Under the pieces are notes generated by a model. It had not been told where the DNA came from and searched no databases. It was given only the letters and a program-made list of their open reading frames with translations. A program made the position numbers and the translations under genes. From NCBI RefSeq assembly GCF_000518205.1, contig NZ_JADD01000004.1, positions 62,001 to 126,000 on the forward strand: 64,000 bases of DNA. The letters run 5' to 3'. This document shows positions 10,269 to 17,357 of this stretch, piece after piece (the stretch's first letter is position 1; each line of letters starts with the position of its first letter). The stretch is from Hutsoniella sourekii ATCC 700629. Its GTDB lineage: Bacteria; Bacillota; Bacilli; Lactobacillales; Aerococcaceae.

Positions 10269-10544
10269 GTAGGTCAGTAGTAGGTTTGTTGTAGGTTAAC
10301 TGAACCTTCTCACCTACTAATAAAAATACTGTTATATCAGCTTTTTCATCAGCAATGGGTGTGCTTGTAGGTTAGTAGGTCAGTTAAACCTTTATCTATA
10401 TTTGTTATATATAATATTTTTATCCTTTATGATTAATGGTCTCTTGACCTACTGACCTACAAAGTCTCCAAACCCCTGCTGTACCAAGAATATTTTAGTA
10501 GGTCATTGTTGTTTTCTAACCTACTCATTGACCTACTGACCTAC
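10269..10544. repeat. Iteron array flanking an AT-rich stretch, putative replication origin
   Basis: The 8-mer GTAGGTYA and its complement occur at least ten times. Plus-oriented copies start at 10269, 10280 and 10291 (11-base spacing; the second is GTAGGTTT) and at 10367 and 10375. Inverted copies start at 10445, 10453, 10517, 10529 and 10537; one more plus copy is at 10498. The two sets face each other across a very AT-rich stretch (10383-10440). The array starts at the primase stop codon. Two opposed iteron sets around an AT-rich core next to rep is the origin layout of staphylococcal pathogenicity islands. Confidence 0.75.
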
Positions 10545-12985
10545 AATAAATCGTCTTTCCCACACCAAACAAAGTGATTTTGATTGGAATTTGTTTCTGG
10601 AAATTCACTTACATAAACCGTTTCATGACTAATGTATGTTGGCACAAGTCGATCTTGATGGATTTCTGACACACGTTTTTGTTTAGATATCCAGTCGTTG
10701 CCTAGAATTTTCAATAAATCGTTGGTGAAATTTCGATGCGTTGGCTTGTTGTAATTATTTCTGGTACAGAAAGTAAGATACATCAAGTAAGCACACTTGG
10801 TTGGTATAGATCTTTCTTCAGGATCCACAAGGCGTTTATTATTTTTTCTATGCTCGAGATAAAAAGCACTATGTCTGCTATTCTCAGACCCAAGGGTAGC
10901 CATGTATTCATCAAATACTTCTTCTTTGAATTGAAGGATTGGCTCATTATCAAGTCGGAATTCCTTGAGTGCCTTTTCAGACGATGCTGGAATAGTGAAC
11001 TCGTTGAAGCTCATATTAACTGCCTTCCAAGCCACCCATTCCAGAATATTCTTGTCATTGATGTACTTTAGTTTTATGTCCTTATTTTCTTCTTGACCTT
11101 CGAATGAAGCTTCAAAATTTAAAATGAGTAAACGTCTGGTAATGCCTTTGGATTTATCTTTAAACCTTGGCATCTCATTGGTCGTTTGAATCACCAGCAT
11201 GTTGAATTGAGCACTATATGATTGGACTCCTTTACGCTCAACCATAACTGGATCTCCAGTAACAATACTTTTGAAATTACTGGCATCCTTTTGGTAATCT
11301 CTAGGGTTCACATCATCACCAATACACACCATCTTTTCTTCCAGCATAGGGAGATTGAACCTTTCAGCAAACTGTCCTAATCTGAGAATAGCTACGTTGT
11401 CTTTGCCAATTAAATTCATAATAAGCTGAATCATAGTCCCTTTACCATTAGCACCATCGCCAACGAACCAGACTGATTTATTTAAACCATAATTACCTGT
11501 GATAGATGCTGAGATCGTTTGCCATATTGCTTCAATAAAATCTTCTTGACCACATGAGATCTCCTGCAACCATTCACTCACTTTCCATCCATCACAATCA
11601 GGTTCTTCTGTTTGTTCAACATAATCGATTGGAAGTTTAGTAGTGAAGACATAACTAGGTGAAAAATCCTCAAGTGTCTTAGTCTCACGGTTATAGATAC
11701 CGTTATTCATAGGTGCCAATGTTCTAGATATATTTTTTTCAACATACGGTGCTGTAAACGTTAAGTCATAGATCACTTCATTTGCTACATCTTTAGTACT
11801 AGAGGGTTCCAGTATTTTTATAACTTTCCTGATAACCGATTCATTCTCTGTGTAAATGCCTTCTAGGGGTTGGTACATTGCCACTCTTGAATTTTCATGA
11901 TTATTAAATCTGACAAATGGAATGTTGCCTTTCAAAATGTTGGCAATATCAACCGCTGTCAATTTTTTCTTATCTTCTTCATACTTATTCTTCAGACTTC
12001 TCAAATACCGATTAAAGTCAGATTCATCTTTGAACTTGGGTAAATCAAAATCAAACTGATCTATCTTAGATTCATTAGAATGTTTTCTAAGTGCTATTTT
12101 CACCTTAGCACCAAAAGTGTATGTACTGTCAGGTTGCTTGCTATTTCTTAGCTCACTCATCATCTGATTAACATTGTTGGCTTCCCATTCTTTATTACCC
12201 ATTGCAACTTTTCTACAGATATCGATAATTCTATTAGCATCTAGTTCACTAGTAAGGAAGCTGTTTTTTAATGCATACCTTATTGATACCCAATTCTCCT
12301 CTACCCTTAAGTTATCTGCTTCAATTTGGATATAATCACTTATTTCTTCATCTGTGACAAATTTGGGTTGTAGTGTAAAGTTATTTACCCGATTATCGAG
12401 AGCCTCATATTCTGAGCGAACATTATCAGCAAGGGATGTGGGAAGCACATTGCTGTAATCAACCTCTATAGCCTCAGTTCCCCCAAAGAAAATCCTTGCT
12501 AAATCACCTGTAGAACGATCTATATTAGGATAAGTATCTAGTAACAGTTTGTTAAGTCGCTTAGTAGCCTCTTGATCTTCGATCGTTTTGTCTAAAATAA
12601 AGACTAATCTGAATCGTTCCCAATCATCCGTGTGGCTAAATGTCTTGTAAGCGAATGATGCAAATTTTTGAGTGAAGTCCATTTCAAGAATATCCGCTAA
12701 TGATGAGTAAGACTCTCCTCGAGTCTTCTCACCATTTACTTTATTGTCAAAATCAACACATATCACTCTTTGTCCAAGCCAAGAATTATTTTTCCGTTCT
12801 CCATTTAGGATAGCTGGAAGAAACGTTTTACCTCGATTTCCAACCTGCTCAGCAATCTCTTGTGGTGAGTAATAGGCATATTGATCCACCAATCTATTAC
12901 TTATAGTTCCAATTTCACTACCTGTGGGTTTTTTATTAAAAGGTTGCTCATCGATAGCTACGTAAATCTTATTGTTGTCTATCAA
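10541..12985 (-). CDS. Primase-helicase, D5/VapE type
   Basis: 814 residues. The N-terminal third has primase-polymerase-like features (CVDFDNK near residue 75; FSHTDDWERFRLVFILD). The C-terminal half is a superfamily 3 helicase with Walker A GDGANGKGT near 510, Walker B VCIGDD, and the TTNEMPRF and GITRRLLILNF motifs of the D5/P4 family. It would prime and unwind at the adjacent iteron origin. The start is a TTG just after the stop of the upstream gene. A fused primase-replicase of this sort is typical of satellites. Confidence 0.88.
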   Translation of the reverse strand: MIDNNKIYVAIDEQPFNKKPTGSEIGTISNRLVDQYAYYSPQEIAEQVGNRGKTFLPAILNGERKNNSWLGQRVICVDFDNKVNGEKTRGESYSSLADILEMDFTQKFASFAYKTFSHTDDWERFRLVFILDKTIEDQEATKRLNKLLLDTYPNIDRSTGDLARIFFGGTEAIEVDYSNVLPTSLADNVRSEYEALDNRVNNFTLQPKFVTDEEISDYIQIEADNLRVEENWVSIRYALKNSFLTSELDANRIIDICRKVAMGNKEWEANNVNQMMSELRNSKQPDSTYTFGAKVKIALRKHSNESKIDQFDFDLPKFKDESDFNRYLRSLKNKYEEDKKKLTAVDIANILKGNIPFVRFNNHENSRVAMYQPLEGIYTENESVIRKVIKILEPSSTKDVANEVIYDLTFTAPYVEKNISRTLAPMNNGIYNRETKTLEDFSPSYVFTTKLPIDYVEQTEEPDCDGWKVSEWLQEISCGQEDFIEAIWQTISASITGNYGLNKSVWFVGDGANGKGTMIQLIMNLIGKDNVAILRLGQFAERFNLPMLEEKMVCIGDDVNPRDYQKDASNFKSIVTGDPVMVERKGVQSYSAQFNMLVIQTTNEMPRFKDKSKGITRRLLILNFEASFEGQEENKDIKLKYINDKNILEWVAWKAVNMSFNEFTIPASSEKALKEFRLDNEPILQFKEEVFDEYMATLGSENSRHSAFYLEHRKNNKRLVDPEERSIPTKCAYLMYLTFCTRNNYNKPTHRNFTNDLLKILGNDWISKQKRVSEIHQDRLVPTYISHETVYVSEFPETNSNQNHFVWCGKDDLL

Positions 12986-12988
12986 ATA

Positions 12989-13216
12989 TTACACCACCCA
13001 ATACTCAACATCCTCTAGAGAATCCAACAAATAATTTCTAAGCCCCTCTGCAGTATCGTAATCTGATTCAAGTAACGCTCGAGTTATCCAATCAACAATT
13101 TCTTTTTCTCTAGTTTTAAATCCTGCTTCAAAACCAACATCGTAACCATCATCCTTACCAGCTTGGTAAGCTAATTGCCATAGGTCGTTTAATTTAATTT
13201 TTTCATTATCAATCAT
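12989..13216 (-). CDS. Hypothetical protein of the early operon
   Basis: 75 residues from the ATG at 13216, selected because GGAGGT lies seven bases upstream; an earlier in-frame TTG at 13231 overlaps that site. The protein is acidic and helical, with WQLAYQAGKDDGYDVGFEAGFKTREKE near its start. The family is not recognised. It ends three bases before the primase start, so the two are likely translated together. Confidence 0.65.
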   Translation of the reverse strand: MIDNEKIKLNDLWQLAYQAGKDDGYDVGFEAGFKTREKEIVDWITRALLESDYDTAEGLRNYLLDSLEDVEYWVV

Positions 13217-13322
13217 TATATTTACCTCCAAAATATTGATATATCAGTGTTTTTGTGTTATAATGGAGGTAGAGAGTTACCCCTACCTCATCGCTGTTTG
13301 AGTTTGAGTAGTTCTTATTCAT
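13209..13322 (-). CDS. Possible 37-residue ORF ahead of the early hypothetical gene
   Basis: ATG at 13322 follows AAGGA by five bases. The ORF ends in a TGA that overlaps the start of the next gene by eight bases, as coupled genes do. The product (MNKNYSNSNSDEVGVTLYLH and 17 more) matches nothing I recognise. The same bases carry a strong promoter and terminator on the other strand, so the ORF and the RNA compete as explanations. Confidence 0.35.
   Translation of the reverse strand: MNKNYSNSNSDEVGVTLYLHYNTKTLIYQYFGGKYND
13236..13264 (+). promoter_or_regulatory. Strong sigma-A promoter facing against the early operon
   Basis: TTGATA at 13236-13241 and a perfect TATAAT at 13259-13264 are separated by exactly 17 bases. 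All protein genes in this part of the element run the other way. Confidence 0.65.
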
Positions 13323-13358
13323 AAATTCCTTAGGCACTTCCCCATAGTGCCTTTTTTT
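13271..13358 (+). ncRNA. Candidate small RNA antisense to the early operon leader
   Basis: About 88 bases lie between a TTGATA-N17-TATAAT promoter and a classic terminator, with no credible ORF on this strand. A 5' hairpin is possible (GAGGTA with TACCTC, 13266-13288). It is complementary to the leader of the 12989-13216 and primase mRNA and to the possible 37-residue ORF. It may tune entry into replication. Expression is inferred, not shown. Confidence 0.5.
13332..13358 (+). terminator. Terminator of the candidate small RNA
   Basis: AGGCACT (13332-13338), a 7-base loop, AGTGCCT (13346-13352), then a T run to 13358. Only the plus strand has the T run after the stem. Confidence 0.75.
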
Positions 13359-13427
13359 GTACACTTTATTGTGTGAGTACTTATTCTGGAACTCAATCTA
13401 CTTACTCACCTCGTTTCTAAATCCTTG

Positions 13428-13682
13428 TTAATTCTCCCATTCGAGTAAACTGATCGAATCTTCAAGTTCATCGATCTTCGTCTCAGTTTCATCTCTAAAA
13501 TGATATAGACTAGCTTCGATATCCGATAGGTCATACTTCACTTCTTCAAGGTCTTCTATTAATGTCAGCATTGGTTTTACCTGTTCGAGTAATTGATTGA
13601 ATCTATCAGCAATCATCGCACACTGTCCTTCAACGTAATTAACTCTGAGCAACAAGTTTTGATACAATTCTTTGTTCTCCAT
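13428..13682 (-). CDS. Small coiled-coil protein of the early operon
   Basis: 84 residues, strongly acidic, and predicted to be helical or coiled-coil almost throughout (LLRVNYVEGQC, then IEDLEEVKYDLSDIEASLYHFRDETETKIDELEDS). No known domain recognised. AAAGGAGAG precedes the ATG. It lies between the candidate excisionase and the small-RNA region. Confidence 0.6.
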   Translation of the reverse strand: MENKELYQNLLLRVNYVEGQCAMIADRFNQLLEQVKPMLTLIEDLEEVKYDLSDIEASLYHFRDETETKIDELEDSISLLEWEN

Positions 13683-14294: not shown

Positions 14295-14324
14295 TACTAT
14301 GTGCTGTAGGTACTGCACATAGTA
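14295..14324. promoter_or_regulatory. Operator of the lysogeny switch
   Basis: A perfect 10-bp inverted repeat, TACTATGTGC/GCACATAGTA, has a 10-base spacer. A further half site CATAGCAC lies at 14339-14346 over the -10 box of the early promoter. Located between the divergent regulators. Confidence 0.7.
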
Positions 14325-14336
14325 CTTCATGTATGT

Positions 14337-14365
14337 ATCATAGCACTATTTTTTATATTTATCAA
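14337..14365 (-). promoter_or_regulatory. Leftward early promoter
   Basis: On the minus strand TTGATA (14360-14365) and TATGAT (14337-14342) are 17 bases apart. Start of transcription is expected near 14330, just before the operator, so a repressor bound there would block it. Confidence 0.75.
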
Positions 14366-14464: not shown

Positions 14465-14998
14465 ATGAGGGGAAAAATAAAAATCGGTCACAAAATTAGA
14501 GAGATCAGAAAAAGTCTTCCTGGAAAACTCAGTATGGAGGAATTCGGTAAGTTATTTGATCCACCTGCTAGCAAAGGGGTCGTTAGTAACTGGGAAAATA
14601 ATTATAATTATCCAAGTGAGGAAAGACTCAAACTCATTGCAGAGTTGGGTGAAACCACTATAGATGAAATTTTTTCTGATAGGGATGAGGAAGAAACCCT
14701 TAGGAAGATAATTTCTGATTTTGAGGTTGAATTAGAAAAATATGAGATTTTAAATGATATGAATAAGTTTATATTAGAAATCTGTGTTTTATCTTCGGAT
14801 CGAATAATGGACATATATAAATCACTAGCTAAAGATGATAAAAATAAAGCTCTTGAAATACTGGACTTGTTTGACAGTGAGGTTAGTGAAGTTATGCACA
14901 ATCATGCAGATAAGCATGAGGAGTACATGTTTAAAATTGATCAACTTCAAAAGAGCATTGAATACAATCAGAGAAAATTAGATGAGGTTTTATTATGA
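14465..14998 (+). CDS. Lysogeny repressor, HTH without autoprotease domain
   Basis: 177 residues. Residues 8-60 form an XRE-type HTH (IRKSLPGKLSMEEFGKL...KGVVSNWEN). The rest is helical and coiled-coil. There is no LexA/CI-type S24 peptidase domain and no HEXXH metallopeptidase motif, so self-cleavage after DNA damage is not expected. Repressors of phage satellites (Stl class) are of this sort and are lifted by a helper-phage protein. AAGGGAGAG precedes the ATG; the stop overlaps the next start (ATGA). Confidence 0.75.
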   Translation: MRGKIKIGHKIREIRKSLPGKLSMEEFGKLFDPPASKGVVSNWENNYNYPSEERLKLIAELGETTIDEIFSDRDEEETLRKIISDFEVELEKYEILNDMNKFILEICVLSSDRIMDIYKSLAKDDKNKALEILDLFDSEVSEVMHNHADKHEEYMFKIDQLQKSIEYNQRKLDEVLL

Positions 14999-15621
14999 AG
15001 GTAGGTATCGTCTTGAAAAAATTAGTTTTATTCCCTTTTTTACTTATATTGTTTTTATTGGCAGGATGTAACAAAGAAGAATTTAATCCCGAAAGCTTTG
15101 ATGATACAGTAGCTTTTTTTGAGAAGAAACTTGACCAAAAAGGTGAAGAACATTTTATCGTTCCTGATCACAAAAATGAACCAGATAAAAAAGTATTTTT
15201 TTATGATGGTGACCAAAAAATAGTTGATTTAGTAACGACTGGTGATTATTCTAAGCTGTATGGTTGTGCAATATTTGTGAATAATTACAATCAAGCCCTT
15301 GAAGTTTTGGAATATGTTAACTTCCCCCTTGTAGATAGCTTTAAAAAGAAGTTTGATCCAAGTATTGAGGTTCCGAAACAAATTCATGCACCCTATAGTC
15401 TATATGTCAGACATAATGGAGTTTCTCTAAATGTTGAACTATCAGGACGTTCTTCTCTCCTTGATGATTTTGATGATATATATGGTGAATATCCAATGGC
15501 TATGACTTTTTATTTTAATGAAAATCAAGCCTTGTTTGAAGAACAGGAATTTGAGAAAAAATATGAAAAAGTATTTGGAGAAAAAAATCCGAATCTTGAA
15601 AGCACCCAAATATTCGAGTAA
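14995..15621 (+). CDS. Lipoprotein of the lysogeny module, possible superinfection exclusion
   Basis: 208 residues. A signal peptide of about 22 residues ends in the lipobox LLAGC, so the mature protein should be anchored outside the membrane by the cysteine. The rest is hydrophilic with no recognised domain. It overlaps the repressor stop by four bases and would be expressed in the lysogen. In several Gram-positive temperate phages a lipoprotein gene in this place, between repressor and integrase, blocks DNA entry of other phages. The role here is inferred from position and export only. Confidence 0.7.
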   Translation: MKVGIVLKKLVLFPFLLILFLLAGCNKEEFNPESFDDTVAFFEKKLDQKGEEHFIVPDHKNEPDKKVFFYDGDQKIVDLVTTGDYSKLYGCAIFVNNYNQALEVLEYVNFPLVDSFKKKFDPSIEVPKQIHAPYSLYVRHNGVSLNVELSGRSSLLDDFDDIYGEYPMAMTFYFNENQALFEEQEFEKKYEKVFGEKNPNLESTQIFE

Positions 15622-15623
15622 AC

Positions 15624-15648
15624 CAACCAGCATAGGAGTGTGTGGGAA
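15624..15648. repeat. 25-bp inverted repeat, right copy
   Basis: Exact reverse complement of 3357-3381. It lies in the gap after the lipoprotein stop and ends a few bases before the integrase ribosome site, so it may act on integrase expression or on DNA architecture. Confidence 0.85.
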
Positions 15649-15668
15649 CTGAAAGGAGATACACAATA

Positions 15669-16789
15669 TTGTCTATTCAAAAACAAGCAAATGGTACCTA
15701 TACAGTTCAAGTTCATCATGGTTACAATAAATTAGGTAAGAGACGGCAAAGCAAAAGAAGAGGAATAGCAACTCTTAAAGAAGCAAAATTAATTGAAGCA
15801 TATTTAATAGAGAATAATCCAATAAAGGAAGAAGACTCTATAACCTTTTTGGAAGTATATGAAATCTGGCTTGACCAATACAAACAAGGCGACGTTAAAG
15901 AAAGTACGATTCAAAAAACAACTAAAGCTTTTGAAAACCACATATTACCTGTTTTGGGTGATAAAAAAATAGATGAGATAACTAAGTTTCAGTTGCAGGA
16001 ACTAGTCAATATGTGGGCTAAGCAATTTGTCAACTACAAGGCACACATAGTGAATTACATGAATAAAGTGTTCGATAAAGCATATAAACTAGAGTTAATA
16101 GATAAGAATCCCACCGACTTTTTGGACTATCCTAAAGCCAAAGAGTCAACTAATGAAGGGTTAAAATTTTATGACAAAGACCAAGTAAACAAATTACTTA
16201 AAGTAATCTCTGAAGAAGATTCAACAAGATGGTTAGCAACCTTTAGATTGTTTATTTATTCTGGTATGAGATCTGGAGAATTACGGGCACTAACGTGGAG
16301 TGATGTAGATTTTGAGAATAATGAAATCAATATCAACAAAACTCTATCAATTGGTGAAGGCTATAAAATGGTTATTCAAACCCCTAAATCAAAAGCTAGT
16401 CAAAGAGTTATTACTCTAGATAAGGATACAATGCTAATCCTTAAGAGCTGGAAACTTGAACAACAGCAGTTGTTTTTAAAATTAGGAAAAAAAATACAAG
16501 TGAGATAGTTTTTACAGGTATTGAAAGCCTGACTTATATGAATAATCCAAGTGTAAGTAGAAACCTAAAAAAATTTCAAAAAAAAGCTGGATTACCTCAA
16601 ATTAATCTTCATTCTTTAAGACATACCCATTGTTCACTACTCTTTGAAGCAGGTGTTGGAATGGAAGTTGTTAAAGAACGATTGGGTCACTCAAATATTG
16701 AAACCACAATGGATGTTTACACTCATGTAACAACTAAAAGACATGAGGACACAGCAAGAATTTTTGCTGAAAGCATGGAGATCTCATAA
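15669..16789 (+). CDS. int: Tyrosine integrase, coded in two frames joined by a -1 shift
   Basis: The start is a TTG at 15669, nine bases after AAAGGAGA. The first frame runs to a TAG at 16506 and holds the arm-binding and core-binding domains and the first catalytic Arg (SGMRSGELRAL). The second frame (16490-16789) holds HSLRHTH, LGHSNIETTM and the nucleophile in DVYTH. A -1 shift in the A8 run at 16487-16494 would yield one 373-residue enzyme, the normal length. Either the shift is used (slippage) or the gene is broken by a one-base deletion. It would catalyse insertion at ssrA. Confidence 0.8.
16487..16493 (+). other. Slippery A-AAA-AAA heptamer in the integrase
   Basis: Eight A residues (16487-16494) lie so that A_AAA_AAA is in the zero frame, the correct register for -1 slippage. 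The zero-frame stop follows 13 bases later. No clear downstream stem or upstream stimulatory ribosome site was found. Confidence 0.5.
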
Positions 16790-16990: not shown

Positions 16991-17006
16991 ATATGGAGAT
17001 GAGGGG
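16991..17006. repeat. Right attachment repeat, overlapping the ssrA 3' end
   Basis: ATATGGAGATGAGGGG matches 3276-3291. On the minus strand it supplies the last bases of the T-arm and the 3' acceptor strand of tmRNA, so the gene remains intact after integration. Confidence 0.9.
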
Positions 17007-17357
17007 AATTGAACCCCTGTCCAGACACCTCGATCACCGGTGAATCTACGCCAATAGTCATCTCTATTTAATATTTAATTGATGATTAGCCGATTAACAA
17101 GGCTTCATCATCAACGAGTCTGATTGTCTTCTTCCAGCTCCTCCAGACGGAAGGAGTTTGGCGTATCCCACTAATTTGAGACTGGTTATCCGGTACATGG
17201 GCGATACCGGGCCAATCTTCGCCCGCAGGTTTTACGCTGCTAAAGCGAAATTATTGTTTGTTTTTGCAGTTATATTTAACTGTAGCGTTTTTAGGAAGAC
17301 GCTGCCTTCCTGGCGCATCACTGGCTCGTCAGTGCCTGTCGAAACCAGAGCATCCCC
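16994..17357 (-). ncRNA. ssrA: tmRNA
   Basis: About 364 bases. It rescues stalled ribosomes by adding a degradation tag. The 5' end GGGGATGCTCTGGTTTCGACAGG-type sequence and the 3' end CATCTCC form the seven-pair acceptor stem (one G-U), and the T-arm GGGGTTCAATTCCCC is present. The tag frame reads AKTNNNFALAA then TAA. The terminal CCA is not encoded at the 3' end. The satellite element is integrated exactly at this 3' end. Confidence 0.95.

What the first reader, a model, noticed from the sequence alone, without database searches (positions are those of the whole stretch)
13236..13358. Candidate antisense small RNA opposite the early operon
Seen: TTGATA-N17-TATAAT followed about 70 bases later by a perfect-stem terminator with T7, on the strand with no genes. 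The transcript would be complementary to the leader of the mRNA for 12989-13216 and the primase, and to a possible 37-residue ORF. Inference: it could hold replication down in the integrated state, or form an antisense toxin-type pair with that ORF.
Basis: partly seen in the sequence, partly recalled or inferred. Interest (0 to 1): 0.65.

Follow-up and report, generated by a model that had tools for sequence, protein, structure and literature searches.

The report
Antisense RNA switch in phage satellite
A short RNA gene lies opposite the early genes of an integrated virus-like DNA element and appears built to shut off its replication gene; relatives in Streptococcus carry an RNA in the same slot whose key sequence is repeated just in front of the integrase gene, hinting at an undescribed RNA circuit that ties excision to early gene expression.

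Summary
TTGATA-N17-TATAAT (extended -10, 11/12) and a perfect-stem T7 terminator lie on the plus strand in a gap of the early operon of a capsid-forming-satellite-like element; 1 of 1000 shuffles gives such a pair.

Best reading: a ~88-nt cis-antisense RNA that represses the 75-aa gene and the D5 primase behind it. The early mRNA carries three mutually complementary segments: SD, anti-SD and competitor. Masking the RNA's footprint drops SD openness from 0.68 to 0.02; 0/400 shuffles do this. It works like R1 CopA/Tap or pMV158 RNAII. A toxin pair is not supported.

The slot recurs. Elements L230 and L239 have antisense promoter-terminator pairs there. Streptococcal satellites have an RNA there, absent from Rfam, whose 5' arm and loop are repeated in the integrase leader: 18 of 20 elements found by that RNA alone have the repeat directly before an integrase ORF. 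Copies differ almost only by C>T and A>G, which keep G·U pairing with the early mRNA. The window RNA is not a sequence member and lacks the integrase-leader copy.

Everything is in silico; no transcript has been seen.

The parts
13236..13264 (+). Promoter of the antisense RNA: TTGATA-N17-TATAAT with extended -10
   Evidence: 11/12 match, best of 41 in 12 kb; 34-bp, 88% match to Javan219 in the same slot
13232..13255 (.). Imperfect palindrome AAATATTGATATATCAGTGTTTTT over the -35 box; possible operator
   Evidence: Sequence; exact TTGATATATCA occurs only here in the window, near matches are at chance level
13271..13358 (+). Predicted antisense RNA, about 88 nt; start site inferred from the -10 box
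   Evidence: Promoter-terminator pair 1/1000 shuffles; fold z -3.3 for 13268-13359
13332..13358 (+). Intrinsic terminator, 7-bp stem and T7
13223..13230 (-). S1: SD of the 75-aa gene (UGGAGGUA in the mRNA)
   Evidence: 8 nt before ATG 13216; pairs with S2 when the RNA footprint is masked
13265..13272 (-). S2: anti-SD (CUACCUCC in the mRNA)
   Evidence: Complementary to S1 and S3
13283..13289 (-). S3: competitor (GAGGUAG in the mRNA)
   Evidence: Pairs with S2 in the free mRNA fold
13209..13322 (-). Possible 37-codon leader ORF; start region covered by the RNA, stop overlaps the next start codon
   Evidence: as part of the 51-codon GTG ORF; no relatives
12989..13216 (-). 75-aa gene of unknown function, proposed target
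   Evidence: no relatives
10541..12985 (-). D5-type primase/helicase gene, directly behind the 75-aa gene
   Evidence: Pox_D5, D5_N, DUF5906, phrog_864
14337..14365 (-). Likely promoter of the early operon, TTGATA-N17-TATGAT with TG
   Evidence: 10/12

Best explanation
The site encodes a short cis-antisense RNA that holds down the replication genes (75-aa ORF and D5 primase) of an integrated satellite. In the free early mRNA, S2 (CUACCUCC) is held in a hairpin by S3 (GAGGUAG), so the SD of the 75-aa gene is mostly open. The antisense RNA, starting at about 13271, pairs with the loop and S3 but stops just short of S2. Freed S2 then closes the SD, and the 75-aa gene and the primase behind it are not translated. 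The RNA also covers the start of a 37-codon leader ORF whose translation would otherwise melt the lock. On induction, excess early mRNA and collision of polymerases would overcome it. Shown: promoter, terminator, complementary segments, computed switch, recurrence of the slot. Inferred: transcription, start site, translational coupling, repression in the cell.
For: Promoter plus terminator 1/1000 in shuffles; stable fold; SD unpaired probability 0.68 free vs 0.02 with the footprint masked, 0/400 shuffles drop by 0.6 or more; SD, ATG spacing and gene order sd-75aa-primase; antisense pairs in the same slot of L230 and L239, 2 of 15 loci vs 0.2 expected and none on the sense strand; antisense RNA unit in the same slot of streptococcal satellites.
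Against: No expression data. The switch depends on the start site: starts at 13265 or 13268 give none. Masking is a crude model of binding. No close relative, so no covariation test of S1-S2-S3. 13 of 15 distant primase loci lack a clear pair. The streptococcal RNAs do not show the switch.
Confidence: 0.5

Rival explanations
1. CopA/Tap-type control without an SD switch: the RNA blocks translation of the 37-codon leader ORF, to which the 75-aa gene and primase are coupled, or invites RNase III cleavage of the early mRNA.
For: The RNA covers SD and ATG of the ORF, whose stop overlaps ATG 13216; same layout as copA in the copB-tap-repA operon (PMC5717011).
Against: The ORF has only a weak, close SD and no relatives; it does not explain S1-S2-S3.
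Confidence: 0.25
2. The RNA acts in trans like the streptococcal RNAs, as a decoy or partner for the integrase or repressor mRNA.
For: Same slot and strand as the streptococcal RNAs.
Against: No repeat or wobble-tolerant match with the window's integrase or repressor leaders above shuffles; no model match.
Confidence: 0.08
3. Type I toxin-antitoxin pair with the 37-residue ORF as toxin.
For: A short ORF lies opposite a short RNA.
Against: The ORF is polar without a membrane segment, overlaps the next gene and has no relatives.
Confidence: 0.03
4. The promoter and terminator are not used as an RNA gene: a chance match in AT-rich DNA, or a site acting only by transcriptional interference.
For: Promoter-like sites in general are at chance level; no expression data.
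Against: Pair 1/1000, switch 0/400, same slot used in other satellites.
Confidence: 0.14

Closest known systems
CopA / tap / repA antisense control of plasmid R1 (PMC5717011)
   Same: Antisense RNA overlapping the intergenic region upstream of a replication gene; possible leader ORF overlapping the next start; repression of translation
   Different: In an integrated satellite rather than a plasmid; target is a 75-aa gene plus D5 primase; a specific SD / anti-SD / competitor switch is predicted
RNAII of streptococcal plasmid pMV158 (PMC5717011)
   Same: Countertranscript in the gap between a regulator gene and a replication gene; 5' tail plus terminator hairpin
   Different: No sequence relation tested or seen; CopG-type repressor gene not present
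Antisense RNAs of P1, P7, N15, P4 and the PLE satellites' IIR transcript (PMC7567579)
   Same: Noncoding RNA of a phage or satellite complementary to leaders of its own early genes
   Different: Those listed act on leaders through short complementary segments; no match of the window to any Rfam family but tmRNA
Streptococcal satellite RNA found here (copy A; not in Rfam)
   Same: Same strand and slot in the early operon; promoter with extended -10; 5' hairpin region followed by terminator
   Different: The streptococcal RNA shares a stretch with the integrase leader and lacks the SD switch; the window RNA is the reverse

Membership tests
Cis-antisense replication control RNA (R1 CopA / pMV158 RNAII type) | Promoter and terminator of a short RNA opposite the leader of a replication gene | tested here: met
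Cis-antisense replication control RNA (R1 CopA / pMV158 RNAII type) | RNA represses translation or synthesis of the replication protein | not testable with these tools
   Only a computed SD switch is available
Cis-antisense replication control RNA (R1 CopA / pMV158 RNAII type) | Leader ORF translationally coupled to the replication gene (R1 only) | tested here: inconclusive
   Overlapping 37-codon ORF present; no relatives, coupling unknown
Streptococcal satellite RNA with integrase-leader copy | Sequence match to the RNA | tested here: not met
   Model R1 finds held-out copies but nothing at the site or in the window's genome
Streptococcal satellite RNA with integrase-leader copy | Same-strand repeat of 5' arm and loop in the integrase leader | tested here: not met
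Streptococcal satellite RNA with integrase-leader copy | Antisense position between regulator genes and replication genes | tested here: met
Type I toxin-antitoxin pair | Small hydrophobic toxin ORF opposite or beside the RNA | tested here: not met
   ORF is polar with no membrane segment by inspection; no relatives
Rfam RNA families, C4 and other known antisense RNAs included | Covariance model match | tested here: not met
Capsid-forming PICI (the element that carries the RNA) | Integrase, regulators, primase plus own capsid, protease, portal and terminase | tested here: met
   Pfam and PHROG matches; absence of tail and lysis genes judged from the ORF list only
Capsid-forming PICI (the element that carries the RNA) | Needs a helper phage | not testable with these tools

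The most novel reading that the evidence does not exclude
Gram-positive phage satellites often carry an antisense RNA in one fixed slot of the early operon. In streptococcal satellites it is one corner of a three-RNA circuit: the early mRNA carries the complement of the integrase leader's 5' arm and loop, pairs with it and opens the hairpin that hides the integrase start region, so that integrase is made only when early genes are on; the antisense RNA, a copy of that stretch, soaks up stray early mRNA in the quiet state. The window's RNA is a branch whose target is the replication gene itself.
Probability: 0.35. Interest if true: 0.8.

Novelty: new variant of a known kind. Interest (0 to 1): 0.62.

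Why it matters
In the literature searched here I found no small RNA that governs the quiet state of PICI-type satellites. This gives a precise, cheap-to-test switch for satellite replication. The comparison it prompted gives a candidate RNA, unmatched in Rfam, that would link excision to early gene expression in satellites of many Streptococcus species (S. suis, S. pyogenes, S. agalactiae and S. pneumoniae among the similar records), and would explain how integrase stays off until the early operon is on.

Tried and rejected
Promoter similarity as proof of homology: 35-bp matches in two family genomes (L006, L007) are chromosomal, one beside a transposase-like ORF and one before a nagB-like gene, so the Javan219 match alone is weak evidence. 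Close relatives of the primase: none in genome contigs, only the window's own sequence in viral contigs. Relatives of the 75-aa protein: none. Repeat of the window RNA in its integrase or repressor leader: none. SD switch in the streptococcal RNAs: absent. One RNAalifold structure for all streptococcal copies: none, the alignment mixes stem types; longest helices around the loop were compared with shuffles instead, at least 7 bp in 71% vs 31%. Protein-binding or DNA-site reading of the streptococcal repeats: disfavoured, because the repeat differs between elements yet matches within them and the differences are directional; an integrase-specific site that co-evolves is not fully excluded. Lacto-int, a 2010 candidate listed without accession in the table I read (PMC2864571): identity with the streptococcal copy could not be excluded; Rfam searches of both copies found nothing above threshold. 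L298 among the held-out elements: its best repeat is a second copy of the RNA, not an integrase leader.

Full report
1. The observation. On the plus strand TTGATA (13236) and TATAAT (to 13264) stand 17 nt apart with TG before the -10, and a 7-bp perfect stem with T7 ends at 13358. Promoter-like sites in general are no commoner than in shuffles, and terminators are rarer. The combination is unusual: over the 1.4 kb from the primase to the divergent promoter, 1 of 1000 dinucleotide shuffles has a promoter of at least 11/12 followed within 160 nt by a terminator. The predicted RNA folds with z -3.3. No Rfam family fits.

2. The setting. The element runs from about 3.4 kb to near the tmRNA 3' end at 16,991 and encodes terminase, capsid, S78 protease, portal, D5 primase, an excisionase-like HTH protein, two small HTH regulators facing apart and a tyrosine integrase. 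I saw no tail or lysis genes, but judged this from the ORF list only. It reads as a capsid-forming PICI-like satellite. The RNA lies opposite the gap between the 84-aa gene (13428-13682) and the 75-aa gene (12989-13216), which is followed at once by the primase.

3. How it could work. The minus-strand mRNA holds three mutually complementary pieces: S1, the SD of the 75-aa gene (UGGAGGUA, 13230-13223); S2, CUACCUCC (13272-13265); S3, GAGGUAG (13289-13283). In the free mRNA S2 pairs with S3 and the SD is 68% unpaired. When the footprint of an RNA starting at 13271 is masked, S2 pairs with S1 and the SD is 2% unpaired. A drop of 0.6 or more occurs in none of 400 shuffles of the region, although low SD openness by itself occurs in 18. 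The prediction is sharp: with a start at 13265 or 13268 the RNA would cover S2 and the switch disappears. The RNA also covers the start of a 37-codon ORF whose stop overlaps ATG 13216, an arrangement like tap-repA of plasmid R1 (PMC5717011). Both routes end in repression of the 75-aa gene and, if translation is coupled, the primase. Masking is a crude stand-in for binding; expression, start site and coupling are inferred.

4. Is it conserved? No close relative of the element is held. Among 15 distant primase loci of the order, L239 (same bacterial family) and L230 have an antisense promoter-terminator pair in the same slot, between the HTH genes and the replication genes; shuffles predict 0.2, and the sense strand has none. 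L231 and L237 have such pairs near regulator genes, outside the tested stretch or threshold. L230 shows a partial SD effect, 0.47 to 0.25. So the arrangement recurs but is not universal.

5. A lead outside the window. The promoter matched Javan219, a streptococcal satellite, in the same slot (34 bp, 88%, E = 0.02), though similar stretches also occur at unrelated chromosomal sites. Streptococcal satellites have an RNA-like unit there: promoter (recognised by script in 19 of 33), a hairpin with a loop around GCYTGCCYGCT, and a terminator (script 17 of 33; more by eye). The 5' arm and loop are repeated on the same strand in the integrase leader, where they take part in a hairpin that usually hides the integrase start region.

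6. Strength of that lead. Of 24 elements chosen by full-length integrase homology alone, all have an exact repeat of at least 15 nt between the integrase leader and the early-operon site; many are near-identical, and the weakest integrase matches (L269-L273) were not tested this way. Over a non-redundant set of 33, some chosen by the motif itself, a leader matches its own element's RNA better than others' (mean 24.9 vs 11.8; 0 of 10,000 permutations), with own RNA best or tied in 21 of 33. Related elements are not independent, so this is not a clean probability. Starting from the RNA alone in unannotated genomes, 18 of 20 elements have the repeat with an integrase-like ORF right behind it; L298 shows only a second RNA copy and L305 none. 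Those 20 were found with a model built from the first set, and some are related to it.

7. Direction of change. From RNA copy to integrase copy, differences are C>T 26, A>G 4, T>C 2 and two transversions in the first set (17 of 19 distinct transition contexts in the favoured direction), and C>T 10, A>G 4 and nothing else among 13 distinct held-out pairs. C>T and A>G in the integrase copy keep G·U pairing with the complement of the RNA, that is, with the early mRNA. Part of the C>T excess lies in the arm that pairs with the SD and may be driven by that. Masking the repeat raised SD openness from a mean of 0.37 to 0.69 over 30 leaders, but the SD chosen by script was wrong in some, many changes were negligible, and the start codon often stayed paired. 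Activation of integrase by the early mRNA is therefore a hypothesis; repression is not excluded.

8. Membership. The window RNA is not a sequence member of the streptococcal RNA: the model finds nothing at the site or in the window's genome, and matches 23 genomes of a single genus out of 80. It has no copy in its own integrase leader. The streptococcal RNAs lack the SD switch. It works like CopA or RNAII; whether it shares descent with the streptococcal RNAs is open.

9. Known or new. Complementarity of noncoding RNAs to leaders is described for P1, P7, N15, P4 and the PLE satellites (PMC7567579), and antisense control of rep genes is classical (PMC5717011). In the open papers searched I found no report of such an RNA in PICI-type satellites or of the RNA/integrase-leader pair; subscription papers are not covered.

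Noticed in passing
L002, L025-L030, L151-L201, L244-L268, L291-L310: Streptococcal satellites carry an antisense RNA-like unit in the early operon whose 5' arm and loop are repeated in the integrase leader; the repeat differs between elements but matches within them.
   Followed up: yes
15642-16789: The integrase reading frame is split: 15642-16508 holds the N-terminal part and 16538-16789, in another frame, the C-terminal part. The satellite may be unable to excise, or the assembly has an error.
   Followed up: no
16991-17357: tmRNA gene next to the integrase end; probable integration site of the satellite.
   Followed up: no
14295-14324: Perfect inverted repeat TACTATGTGC-N10-GCACATAGTA between the two divergent regulator genes; likely operator.
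   Followed up: no
14995-15621: Lipoprotein-like gene without Pfam match between repressor and integrase.
   Followed up: no
L028:3075-3456: Three CRISPR-type direct repeats (RF01335) inside the satellite Javan624, in the region annotated as replication and helicase loader genes.
   Followed up: no
L028:896-1006 and L029:10293-10533: Known pneumococcal sRNAs SpF41 and SpF66 match inside streptococcal satellites, at places other than the RNA described here.
   Followed up: no
L241:8887 and L242:7000: Chromosomal stretches nearly identical to the window promoter (AACATTGATATATCAGTGTTTTTGTG-like), one after a transposase-like ORF, one before a nagB-like gene.
   Followed up: partly
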